A stretch of 12,286 bases of DNA, taken from Candidatus Saccharimonadota bacterium. GTDB taxonomy: Bacteria; Patescibacteriota; Saccharimonadia; Saccharimonadales; UBA4665. Of the stretch, positions 1,323 to 2,901 are shown one piece after another. A program made the position numbers and the translations under genes. The notes beneath the pieces are model-generated. The model ran no database searches. It saw only the letters and a list, made by a program, of their open reading frames with translations, and was not told the origin of the DNA. The stretch is taken from NCBI GenBank assembly GCA_028289265.1, contig JAQGGU010000040.1, positions 1 through 12,286 on the forward strand, in the 5' to 3' direction. Each line of letters opens with the position of its first letter. Position 1 is the first letter of the stretch.

Positions 1323-2402
1323 CTATCTCCTGAGCCCAACGGCTTTTTGTACTTTAAGTAGTTTTGAATTGGCTACTTCGTTCATGGCAGCCTCATCTTG
1401 CTCCAGCTTCGCCAAAAGTTCATTCTCGTCCACACCAGCGATCTTCGCCTGAATATCAATTAAGAAAGCTTCTACGGCTGCCGCCACGGCTTTCTTGAGG
1501 TCGCCATAGCTCGACTTGCCTTCCCACTCAGCACTCACTTCAGCTTGTGGACGACCGCTGAGCAATGCCAGCATCTGTAATAAGTTAGAGATACCTGGAC
1601 GCTCCTTGAAGTCATAACGTATCTCGCCAAAACTGTCAGTTTCTGCGCGCATAACCTTCTTTGCGGCTTCAGCTGGGTTATCGCTGAGCATAATAGTCCC
1701 GGAAGGATCCGAAACGCTCTTGCTCATCTTCTTCTCCGGATTAAGAAGGCTGCGCACACGTGCTCCAGCTTCCAGGTTCATAAATTCAAGCTGCTTGTTC
1801 CAGGCCTCTGGCGGCGTGAATAGCTCCGTCTCGAATTTATTGTTTAGCCGCATCGCGAGGTCGCGGGCTAGCTCAATATGCTGCTTCTGATCATCACCTA
1901 CAGGAATAAACTTAGCGTCGTACAATAATATATCCGCTGCCATAAGCACAGGGTAATTAAATAACCCCGCGGTGATCGGCGGAAAGTCACCTTTATAATC
2001 GTTTTCAATTGCAAGGTTATTCGCAAAATGAGCTAGACTATCTCTCTTGTCTTTAAACTGCGTCATGCGTGAAAGCTCACCAAAACCCGTGAAGTTGCTC
2101 AGTATCCATTGTAGTTCGCTATGAGCAGAGACATAACTTTGACGATAGATAAACGTATTGGGATTATTTATATCAAGTCCGGCAGCAACAAACACCTTTA
2201 GGTTATCGATGGTTTGTTGATACAACTTGCTGTGGTCTATAGGCGTCGTAAAGCTGTGTAGGTCAGGCACGAACATGTTGACTTGGTATTCGCCCGCATG
2301 GCGAGCCTGTAGTTCTATGACCGGTAAGATACCGCCAAGATAGTTACCGATATGAAATTCAGAATTCGCCCGAAGGCCTGTAAGTACGACAGGTGTGCTC
2401 AT
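1323..2402 (-). CDS. trpS: Tryptophanyl-tRNA synthetase (class Ic)
   Basis: This 359-residue cytoplasmic enzyme charges tRNA-Trp with tryptophan using ATP. It has the class I signature motifs HIGN (residues 17-20) and KMSKS (225-229). Between them lies the characteristic TrpS block FNYPVLMAADILLYDA, followed by VGDDQKQHIELARD (about 148-181). The length is somewhat above the usual 330-340 residues. The start is ATG at 2402. A GAGG lies about 14 nt upstream, too far for a good ribosome site. A TATAAT (2416-2411) ends 8 nt before the ATG, without a recognisable -35, so a weak leaderless transcript is possible. The main expression route is probably readthrough from the upstream leader region (promoter 2873-2901, attenuator 2731-2826). 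The upstream hypothetical gene ends 16 nt away and rluD starts 5 nt downstream. Confidence 0.96.
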   Translation of the reverse strand: MSTPVVLTGLRANSEFHIGNYLGGILPVIELQARHAGEYQVNMFVPDLHSFTTPIDHSKLYQQTIDNLKVFVAAGLDINNPNTFIYRQSYVSAHSELQWILSNFTGFGELSRMTQFKDKRDSLAHFANNLAIENDYKGDFPPITAGLFNYPVLMAADILLYDAKFIPVGDDQKQHIELARDLAMRLNNKFETELFTPPEAWNKQLEFMNLEAGARVRSLLNPEKKMSKSVSDPSGTIMLSDNPAEAAKKVMRAETDSFGEIRYDFKERPGISNLLQMLALLSGRPQAEVSAEWEGKSSYGDLKKAVAAAVEAFLIDIQAKIAGVDENELLAKLEQDEAAMNEVANSKLLKVQKAVGLRR

Positions 2403-2418
2403 TGCTTGTAATTATACC

Positions 2419-2703
2419 TCATTTTACGAAGTACGGAGAGCGGTCCCGTATGGGCCCTGCAGCTAGTAGACCGAGCTCCACGAGTCTTTGTGTATTTTCA
2501 CTAGCACCTTCGACTAACTGCCGTTGGCTTATGACTGTAGTTTCCTCATCTGGTGACGGTGTTTCAACAGTAAGCGCATGTCGTCCTACATTCGCTGCTT
2601 TCTCAGCCCACCGACCACCAAACGTATTTGCTAATCTCTGCTGAGCCAGAGCGATGAGCGCTAAATCTTCCGTAGAAGGTCCTTTTATTTCTGGTGCTGG
2701 CAT
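2419..2703 (-). CDS. Hypothetical protein, 94 residues, between attenuator and trpS
   Basis: I do not recognise this protein. It is 94 residues, soluble in character, with no signal peptide, membrane segment or cysteine. The N-terminal half is Ala/Leu-rich and likely helical (about residues 11-40). It is followed by a Thr/Pro/Glu-rich linker (about 44-56) and a second helical stretch with QRQLVEGASENTQRLVELG (about 60-78), loosely like a DNA- or RNA-binding helical domain; this is only an impression. The start is supported by AAAGGA 6 nt before ATG. The gene begins only about 20 nt after the T-run of an intrinsic terminator, so it can be expressed only by readthrough. It ends with TGA, the only TGA stop among 21 complete stops in the window. 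It is 16 nt upstream of trpS and probably co-transcribed with it. Confidence 0.6.
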   Translation of the reverse strand: MPAPEIKGPSTEDLALIALAQQRLANTFGGRWAEKAANVGRHALTVETPSPDEETTVISQRQLVEGASENTQRLVELGLLAAGPIRDRSPYFVK

Positions 2704-2723: not shown

Positions 2724-2750
2724 TTAAAAAAACCGCCTCTTGGCGGTTCC
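2724..2750 (-). terminator. Intrinsic terminator of the trpS leader (3:4 hairpin)
   Basis: On the minus strand AACCGCC (2748-2742), a four-base loop and GGCGGTT (2737-2731) form a perfect 7-bp GC-rich stem, running into seven T residues (2732-2726). It lies 20 nt after the stop of the 31-codon leader ORF and directly before the ribosome site of the 94-residue gene. It would therefore cut transcription short before trpS. Its 5' arm can pair instead with the leader segment at 2815-2806. Confidence 0.85.
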
Positions 2751-2826
2751 TTTGTGGGTTCTAGTTTCGTTATCGTCGATATCGAGTATTAGAGCGCACT
2801 GGAGCAACCGCCAAGCTTTTGCCGGT
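2731..2826 (-). promoter_or_regulatory. Putative ribosome-mediated attenuator upstream of trpS
   Basis: Three mutually exclusive pairings are visible in the minus-strand transcript. In 1:2, ACCG(G)CAA (2826-2819) pairs with TTG(G)CGGT (2814-2807) around loop AAGC, giving 7 bp with one G-G mismatch. In 2:3, CTTGGCGGTT (2815-2806) pairs perfectly over 10 nt with AACCGCCAAG (2748-2739), which includes the terminator's 5' arm. In 3:4 the terminator itself forms (2748-2742 with 2737-2731). The only Trp codon of the leader ORF (2838-2836) lies 10 nt before arm 1. A ribosome stalled there would cover arm 1 and favour 2:3, allowing readthrough into the 94-residue gene and trpS. The pairing is seen directly; the regulatory logic is inferred from trp/phe-type attenuators. 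The leader stop lies after arm 2 rather than between arms 1 and 2, which differs from the classical trp leader. Confidence 0.55.
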
Positions 2827-2865
2827 AAAGAAATACCAATATGCGAAGTTGAGGATTGCTTTCAT
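2770..2865 (-). CDS. 31-residue aromatic-rich leader peptide, apparently leaderless
   Basis: This small ORF begins with ATG at 2865 and ends with TAA at 2772-2770. The peptide has a short hydrophobic part containing the run NFAYWYFF (residues 6-13), with one Trp, two Tyr and three Phe. A basic tail follows, rich in Arg (RSNTRYRR, 24-31). The ATG lies 7 nt after a -10 element, so the transcript should start at or next to the start codon and carry no useful Shine-Dalgarno. The nearby GGGAG is too close and would mostly lie upstream of the transcript start. The ORF is framed by its own promoter and an intrinsic terminator. The likely role is a sensor leader peptide for the trpS unit. Alternatives are a free-standing small membrane-active or RNA-binding protein, or a non-coding RNA that happens to contain an ORF. 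Confidence 0.55.
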   Translation of the reverse strand: MKAILNFAYWYFFTGKSLAVAPVRSNTRYRR

Positions 2866-2872
2866 TACTCCC

Positions 2873-2901
2873 ATGGTATTAGCTTGAGGATTGTTTGTCA
2901 A
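2873..2901 (-). promoter_or_regulatory. Sigma70-type promoter for the trpS leader unit
   Basis: On the minus strand a perfect TTGACA (-35, 2901-2896), a 17-nt spacer and TACCAT (-10, 2878-2873; four of six consensus bases) are present. The stretch upstream of the -35 (about 2902-2925) is A/T-rich like an UP element. The predicted start is around 2866-2865, at the ATG of the leader ORF. Confidence 0.7.

What the first reader, a model, noticed from the sequence alone, without database searches (positions are those of the whole stretch)
2724..2901. Candidate ribosome-mediated attenuator controlling a trpS operon
Seen: a promoter, a 31-codon ORF with an aromatic run (NFAYWYFF) and a single Trp codon, then an intrinsic terminator. 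A 10-nt segment inside the ORF (2815-2806) is perfectly complementary to the terminator's 5' arm (2748-2739). It can alternatively pair with 2826-2819, placed 10 nt after the Trp codon. This yields the 1:2, 2:3 and 3:4 hairpins of an attenuator, and trpS follows two genes down. A chance 10-nt match within about 100 nt is of the order of 1 in 10,000. Known: trp and pheST leaders work this way. Inferred: low charged tRNA-Trp (or another aromatic aminoacyl-tRNA) stalls the ribosome, masks arm 1 and permits readthrough. Caveats are the single Trp codon and the leader stop placed after arm 2. I do not know of such a system described in Patescibacteria.
Basis: partly seen in the sequence, partly recalled or inferred. 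Interest (0 to 1): 0.85.

Follow-up and report, generated by a model that had tools for sequence, protein, structure and literature searches.

The report
Tryptophan-starvation RNA switch in Saccharibacteria
In ultra-small parasitic bacteria a tiny gene with one tryptophan codon, read by a ribosome while it is being transcribed, appears to decide whether the tryptophan-tRNA synthetase gene behind it is switched on, and related switches carry tyrosine, phenylalanine or threonine codons before matching genes.

Summary
Promoter, 31-codon ORF with one Trp codon, 10-nt arm complementarity and terminator are at the stated coordinates, in a Saccharibacteria genome fragment. All four held same-genus relatives carry the element before trpS; a covariance model finds it in 48 of 93 family genomes and 115 of 294 sampled order genomes. 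Helices 1:2, 2:3 and 3:4 covary in 35 training leaders and in 69 matches outside the training set, also at a terminator-loop base that only 2:3 pairing uses. Of 116 leaders, 112 have an in-frame UGG, mostly at codon 10-12. The antiterminator arm is read in all three frames, so RNA is conserved there, not peptide. Leaders without Trp codons: Tyr before tyrA (four loci), Phe before pheA (one), seven Thr codons before thrS (one); five other Trp-less candidates do not match. In 70 of 116 the start codon sits about where transcription should begin (leaderless). Best explanation: ribosome-mediated attenuation sensing charged tRNA-Trp; no expression data were available. The kind is known (trp, pheST; trpS2 predicted in Streptomyces). 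New, as far as I could search: the phylum, the leaderless single-codon layout, the exchangeable codon specificity.

The parts
2873..2901 (-). promoter-like site TTGACA-17-TACCAT; -10 ends 7 nt before the ATG, so the leader mRNA is probably leaderless
   Evidence: a promoter-like site with -10 ending 5-9 nt before the start codon in 70 of 116 leaders; 6% in shuffles
2770..2865 (-). leader ORF, 31 codons plus stop, MKAILNFAYWYFFTGKSLAVAPVRSNTRYRR
2836..2838 (-). regulatory Trp codon UGG (codon 10)
   Evidence: in-frame UGG in 112 of 116 leaders
2819..2826 (-). arm 1 (protector 5' arm), ACCGGCAA
2806..2815 (-). arm 2 (antiterminator 5' arm), CTTGGCGGTT, inside the ORF
2754..2799 (-). inner extension of the antiterminator: GUG at 2799-2797 pairs with CAC at 2756-2754 (conserved UUCUGUG/CAYUGAA boxes in relatives)
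2739..2748 (-). arm 3 (antiterminator 3' arm and terminator 5' arm), AACCGCCAAG
2726..2748 (-). intrinsic terminator: arm 3, loop AAGA, arm 4 GGCGGTT 2737-2731, U run
2419..2703 (-). 94-aa ORF between leader and trpS, no Pfam or NCBIfam match, replaced by other small ORFs or none in same-genus relatives
2411..2416 (-). TATAAT 8 nt before the trpS ATG: candidate basal, leaderless promoter of trpS
   Evidence: 95 of 115 distinct upstream sequences; 5% in shuffles
1323..2402 (-). trpS, tryptophanyl-tRNA synthetase, the regulated gene

Best explanation
It is a ribosome-mediated transcription attenuator of trpS. RNA polymerase starts at or next to the leader AUG and a ribosome starts on that leaderless ORF. 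With enough Trp-tRNA the ribosome passes the single UGG; arm 2 is occupied and then re-pairs with arm 1, so arm 3 pairs with arm 4 and transcription stops near 2726. When charged Trp-tRNA is short the ribosome waits at UGG with its front over arm 1; arm 2 is free and captures arm 3 before arm 4 is made, the terminator cannot form, and the 94-aa ORF and trpS are transcribed. A TATAAT next to trpS probably keeps a basal supply. Shown by sequence comparison: the parts, their covariation and the codon-to-gene match. Inferred: transcription start, stalling, readthrough and the response to Trp.
For: Present in all four other held same-genus genomes. Covariation in 35 leaders: 2:3 helix 87.7% of cells paired against 82.3% shuffled and at most 54.3% slid, 19 double-change cells against 6.6; 1:2 and 3:4 also exceed all 500 shuffles on percentage paired. 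In 69 matches outside the training set, with 2:3 absent from the model's structure: 85.3% against 79.1%, 42 double-change cells against 19.3. Pair 82:169, whose 3' base lies in the terminator loop, is GC 25, UA 8, CG 7, AU 2, GU 2, UG 1, unpaired 20. In-frame UGG in 112 of 116; arm 2 core read in frames 57/37/18 of 112. Codon identity follows the gene in part: Tyr-tyrA, Phe-pheA, Thr x7-thrS, two Trp codons-trpE-like. Folding: terminator probability in the window 0.02 with the ribosome at UGG and 0.93 at the stop.
Against: No transcript, ribosome or phenotype data. The 1:2 hairpin is the weakest element (78.4% and 75.6% of cells paired; one pair formed in 37 of 68 sequences); a version slid by one column has more double-change cells (14 against 11), though only 25.7% paired. 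The minimum-energy fold of the ribosome-free window leader gives arm 2 another 5' partner (nt 6-12 of the leader), with the terminator formed. The stop codon lies after arm 2, so a ribosome at the stop covers arm 2 at most partly; my 'at stop' fold hides all upstream RNA and favours the model, while ribosome-free RNA has a mean terminator probability of 0.69. At least 38 of 86 trpS-bearing family genomes show no leader at E 0.01. Five Trp-less candidates do not precede a recognised cognate gene (upstream leader of L262, L347, L392, L380, L340). Column shuffles ignore relatedness.
Confidence: 0.88

Rival explanations
1. A nascent-peptide sensor: the leader peptide, not the codon speed, arrests the ribosome when free Trp or another ligand binds, as in TnaC (recalled).
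For: Single Trp codon; a Y/F-W-F cluster is frequent; peptides resemble each other within subgroups.
Against: Residues before the Trp vary between subgroups and the part after it is read in three frames. Some leaders before tyrA, pheA and thrS carry cognate codons instead, as expected for tRNA sensing.
Confidence: 0.05
2. The leader is a terminated small RNA or a small-peptide gene with its own role in trans, and readthrough into trpS is incidental.
For: The terminator is strong and the ORF is widespread.
Against: Compensatory 2:3 pairing that competes with the terminator is conserved; the element keeps company with trpS, DAHP synthase, pheA, tyrA and a trpE-like gene.
Confidence: 0.04
3. Another factor (protein or tRNA binding, as in a T-box) sets the 2:3 against 3:4 choice and translation of the ORF is irrelevant.
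For: Any ligand could use the same two hairpins; PMC1262725 says most aminoacyl-tRNA synthetase genes of Firmicutes are under T-boxes (passage).
Against: No T-box or other Rfam family reaches threshold in the window. ATG and UGG are in frame in 67 of 71 leaders outside the training set that have ATG at model position 1, though the model itself favours such matches.
Confidence: 0.03

Closest known systems
trp operon attenuator of Escherichia coli (recalled) and of Corynebacterium and Streptomyces (PMC1262725, passages)
   Same: short ORF with Trp codons, competing 2:3 and 3:4 hairpins, intrinsic terminator
   Different: the Actinobacteria leaders have double or triple UGG (PMC1262725) and sit on biosynthetic operons; here usually one UGG, probably leaderless start, stop after arm 2, target trpS or DAHP synthase
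Candidate attenuator upstream of trpS2 of Streptomyces avermitilis (PMC1262725, passages)
   Same: the same kind of target gene and principle, also predicted by comparison only
   Different: reported for one gene of one species; whether the leaders are homologous was not tested
Leaderless poly-cysteine short ORFs of mycobacteria (Canestrari et al. 2020, known to me only as described in PMC9031893, passages; the paper itself was not held)
   Same: leaderless short ORF whose codons sense amino acid supply
   Different: contiguous Cys codons; here one Trp codon and a covarying three-arm antiterminator
pheST and pheA attenuators of gammaproteobacteria (pheST named in PMC1262725; the rest recalled)
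   Same: aminoacyl-tRNA synthetase or Phe pathway gene under a codon-run leader
   Different: Rfam Phe_leader scores only 15 bits in the window (gathering 55)

Membership tests
ribosome-mediated (leader-peptide) transcription attenuator | short translatable ORF with codons of the sensed amino acid upstream of the terminator | tested here: met
   in-frame UGG in 112 of 116 leaders; ATG and UGG in frame in 67 of 71
ribosome-mediated (leader-peptide) transcription attenuator | antiterminator that competes with an intrinsic terminator, conserved by covariation | tested here: met
ribosome-mediated (leader-peptide) transcription attenuator | protector hairpin 1:2 that a stalled ribosome would disrupt | tested here: met
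   weakest helix, and the second count leans to the model; UGG lies 21 nt (median) before the arm 2 core
ribosome-mediated (leader-peptide) transcription attenuator | downstream gene belongs to the metabolism of the sensed amino acid | tested here: met
   trpS within the held DNA (up to about 3 kb) for 62 of 77 Trp-codon leaders outside the training set; tyrA, pheA, thrS for six Trp-less leaders; five Trp-less candidates without a match
ribosome-mediated (leader-peptide) transcription attenuator | readthrough changes with aminoacyl-tRNA supply | not testable with these tools
   needs RNA or reporter data
classical layout (leader stop between arms 1 and 2; recalled) | stop codon placed so that the terminating ribosome covers arm 2 | tested here: not met
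   stop lies after the arm 2 core in 106 of 108 leaders, median 22 nt
Rfam Trp_leader RF00513 / Phe_leader RF01859 | score at or above gathering | tested here: not met
   no match in the window; on L268 21.9 bits (gathering 41) and 21.5 bits (gathering 55), in the window Phe_leader 15 bits (gathering 55)
T-box | match to an Rfam T-box model | tested here: not met
   no Rfam match at gathering in the window
TnaC-type arrest peptide | conserved peptide residues needed for arrest | tested here: not met
   peptide after Trp is read in three frames; residues before it vary between subgroups

The most novel reading that the evidence does not exclude
Saccharibacteria, and more sparsely other Patescibacteria, use one exchangeable attenuator cassette: a leaderless ORF plus a three-arm RNA whose codon run (Trp, Tyr, Phe, Thr) is swapped to set which amino acid shortage turns on the genes behind it, so that amino acid parasites read their host's supply through the ribosome.
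Probability: 0.6. Interest if true: 0.75.

Novelty: new variant of a known kind. Interest (0 to 1): 0.63.

Why it matters
Patescibacteria are described as missing pathways for making amino acids (PMC11665869, passages); I found nothing on how they sense a shortage, in a limited library. Here is a compact, testable sensor with a ready model for finding its regulon: it already links DAHP synthase, PheA, TyrA, a TrpE-like protein, an aspartoacylase-like enzyme, an M20 peptidase and a racemase-like protein to it. It is a natural test bed for attenuation on leaderless mRNA, and a candidate regulated expression part for a group whose genetic tools are limited.

Tried and rejected
Rejected: T-box or a known Rfam family. 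Rejected: simple terminator of the preceding rpsI; a separate terminator-like site at 3108-3083 follows rpsI and the leader has its own promoter-like site. Tried with little yield: thrS, a Thr leader in 1 of 30 loci read, of 134 genomes with a match; pheS, none recognised in 30 loci read, of 140 genomes (one search took wrong gene starts for pheS; seven of 30 had some upstream ORF with FF, none resembled the leader, and terminators were not checked); tyrA, a Tyr leader in 4 of 30 loci read, of 37 genomes; pheA, a Phe leader in 1 of 30 loci read, of 60 genomes. In many of these loci the gene is inside an operon or the flank is cut.

Dropped rows: weak hits in L016, L035, L043, L048 and L153 and the truncated L023 were left out of the 35-leader alignment; the genomes of L035 and L153 later gave model matches (L395; G014). 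L012 and L039, and L137 and L047, are copies; one of each was used. Of 69 matches outside the family I judged two false (L259, L221 minus strand) and left them out of the 116, but they are in the counts. Of 14 phylum hits outside the order, five look real (L336, L338, L339, L342, L347), one is unclear (L340), eight not. Of 20 loci fetched, nine look real (L379, L381, L382, L383, L384, L386, L389, L394, L395), two are unclear (L380, L392), nine not. Hits that I did not fetch were not read. The first nhmmer table came out empty; the search was rerun.

Full report
WHAT IS THERE. The window lies in a 0.9-Mb draft genome; the best named relatives of its TrpS include several Candidatus Saccharibacteria. 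On the minus strand, between rpsI and trpS, are a promoter-like site (2901-2873), an ATG at 2865 opening a 31-codon ORF with one Trp codon (2838-2836), and a terminator (2748-2726). The 10-nt arm complementarity is exact; 1 of 20,000 dinucleotide shuffles reproduces it. One 94-aa ORF without known family lies between the terminator and trpS.

RELATIVES. All four other held genomes of the genus have a like promoter, Trp-codon ORF, arms and terminator before trpS, although the following small ORF differs or is missing. Upstream regions of trpS in the family, plus named loci, gave 35 aligned leaders: 33 from the family and two from other families of the order. Every one has an in-frame UGG; 33 have exactly one.

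HELICES. On these 35, cells paired are 78.4% for 1:2, 87.7% for 2:3 and 92.1% for 3:4. On this measure each exceeds all 500 column shuffles (means 73.9, 82.3, 89.2) and every slid version. A covariance model R1 with 1:2 and 3:4, but not 2:3, matches 48 of 93 family genomes and 115 of 294 sampled order genomes (family included) at E 0.01. In the 69 matches fetched from outside the family, 2:3 is 85.3% paired (79.1 shuffled, 0 of 500; slid at most 58.4), with 42 double-change cells against 19.3. The outermost pair uses a base in the terminator loop, so the terminator cannot explain its GC/UA/CG/AU covariation; 20 of 65 sequences do not pair there. For 1:2 and 3:4 the counts outside the family (75.6%, 95.1%) lean towards the model. 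Not all measures beat the shuffles: the number of pairs with a change on both sides is matched by 305 (2:3) and 182 (1:2) of 500 shuffles outside the family, and by 10 to 43 of 500 in the training set; a one-column slide has more double-change cells than 1:2 itself. A further conserved box before arm 3 (CAYUGAA) pairs with UUCUGUG behind arm 2 and would extend the antiterminator (81.3% against 76.6%, 0 of 500; pair types 218 of 500).

READING FRAME. Over 116 leaders (35 + 81) the UGG is codon 10-12 in 96; the ORF has 20-27 codons in 96. The arm 2 core is read in all three frames (57/37/18 of 112 where it was located), for example as AVCSVR, GGLFRVF or WRFV. Hence the RNA, not the peptide, is kept behind the UGG. 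A promoter-like -10 ends 5-9 nt before the start codon in 70 of 116 (6% in shuffles), about where transcription should begin; leaderless initiation is inferred.

CODON AND TARGET. Of 81 leaders outside the training set, 77 have a Trp codon; 62 of these have trpS within the held DNA (up to about 3 kb). Of the other 15, nine precede DAHP synthase, one a trpE-like gene (TIGR00564 473 bits, below its cutoff 518), three have short or cut flanks and two have other genes (genes were grouped by blastp and named from Pfam on representatives). None of the four Trp-less ones precedes trpS: two Tyr leaders (MINLNVAQSYLVPYYLAD, MSSIIINSTYYVRIYLADYYSVS) precede tyrA (Pfam PDH_N), one Phe leader (MHYIVSNFFAFTNPS) precedes pheA, and one Phe leader precedes an unknown 212-aa gene. 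First gene tyrA or pheA: 3 of 4 against 2 of 77, Fisher p 0.0005. A second model, R2, leaves out the codon region and models 2:3; it matches 169 of 288 order genomes at E 0.05, false positives included. Reading 20 loci chosen gave a leader with seven consecutive Thr codons before thrS (TIGR00418, 476 bits, cutoff 384) and a Tyr leader before chorismate mutase and tyrA. A further Tyr leader lies before tyrA in G267. Outside the order five weak hits look real: Trp-rich before trpB; W/F-rich before a prephenate dehydratase and, one gene down, pheS; one before an aspartoacylase-like gene; and one with six Phe codons before a carboxylate-amine ligase-like gene, which does not fit.

MECHANISM. In thermodynamic folding of 110 leaders, RNA left free by a ribosome at the UGG gives a mean terminator probability of 0.39, RNA beyond a ribosome at the stop 0.95, ribosome-free RNA 0.69; arm 3 is occupied before arm 4 exists in 0.85 against 0.09 (plainly shuffled middle, ribosome at UGG: 0.41). 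The window values for the terminator are 0.02 and 0.93. The stop-codon state hides arm 2 by construction. In truth the stop is a median 22 nt past the start of the arm 2 core, so re-pairing of arm 2 behind the ribosome is needed, and 1:2 is the least well paired helix; in the ribosome-free fold of the window another upstream stretch pairs with arm 2. Upstream of the trpS start a -10-like box lies 4-14 nt away in 95 of 115 distinct sequences (5% shuffled), suggesting basal leaderless transcription of trpS beneath the attenuated one.

WHAT IS KNOWN. Attenuators of trp operons, and one candidate before trpS2 of Streptomyces avermitilis, were predicted in Actinobacteria (PMC1262725, passages); leaderless Cys attenuators exist in mycobacteria (reported in PMC9031893, passages). 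Searches for such control in Saccharibacteria or Patescibacteria listed no paper that looked relevant, in an open-licence library that lacks most subscription journals; only listings were seen, except for passages of PMC11665869, whose text does not hold the word attenuation. So the kind is known; the phylum, the leaderless layout with arm 2 inside the ORF and the codon exchange on one scaffold are, as far as I could see, undescribed.

LIMITS.

Noticed in passing
window 2991-2955 (-); L002, L003, L005: A 32-37-bp stretch (TTGACA...AGCGCTTATGTCAAT) has two more similar copies in the same genome (89-94% identity) and a similar sequence at the same place in L005; promoter-like or mobile, unexplained.
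   Followed up: no
window 2419-2703 (-) and the same place in relatives: A small, fast-changing ORF sits between leader and trpS in 40 of 62 loci outside the training set. 17 of 122 such ORFs join one weak family with a motif like ILxxxxIEVxxxDxRsxxEI; the window's ORF does not. Some others carry CxxC.
   Followed up: partly
Could be a terminator or a ThrRS-linked RNA element.
   Followed up: partly
L037, L218, L220, L221, L224, L227, L237, L238, L239, L243, L262, L263, L264; G137 (L207, L382): Two attenuators in one operon, in places back to back (L264) or one before each of two genes (L263: class II DAHP synthase, then a trpE-like gene).
   Followed up: partly
L226, L229, L252, L258, L338, L379, L389: An aspartoacylase/AstE-like enzyme recurs behind the leader, also outside the order; perhaps it frees acylated aromatic amino acids (a guess).
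   Followed up: no
L207, L214, L220, L231, L239, L243, L257 (Asp/Glu racemase-like, below Pfam's cut-off); L234, L238, L264, L265 (M20 peptidase); L243 (LysE transporter): Genes not obviously aromatic recur behind the leader and may belong to amino acid scavenging.
   Followed up: no
L340 (hit in G500): An ORF with Ile codons (IIIAIILL), arms and terminator, but no clear gene behind it; a possible Ile version.
   Followed up: no
trpS of G011, G020, G026, G028, G035, G055, G056, G065: TrpS open frames of 385-425 aa with a break in the match near residues 120-145, so some relatives carry an insertion in TrpS.
   Followed up: no
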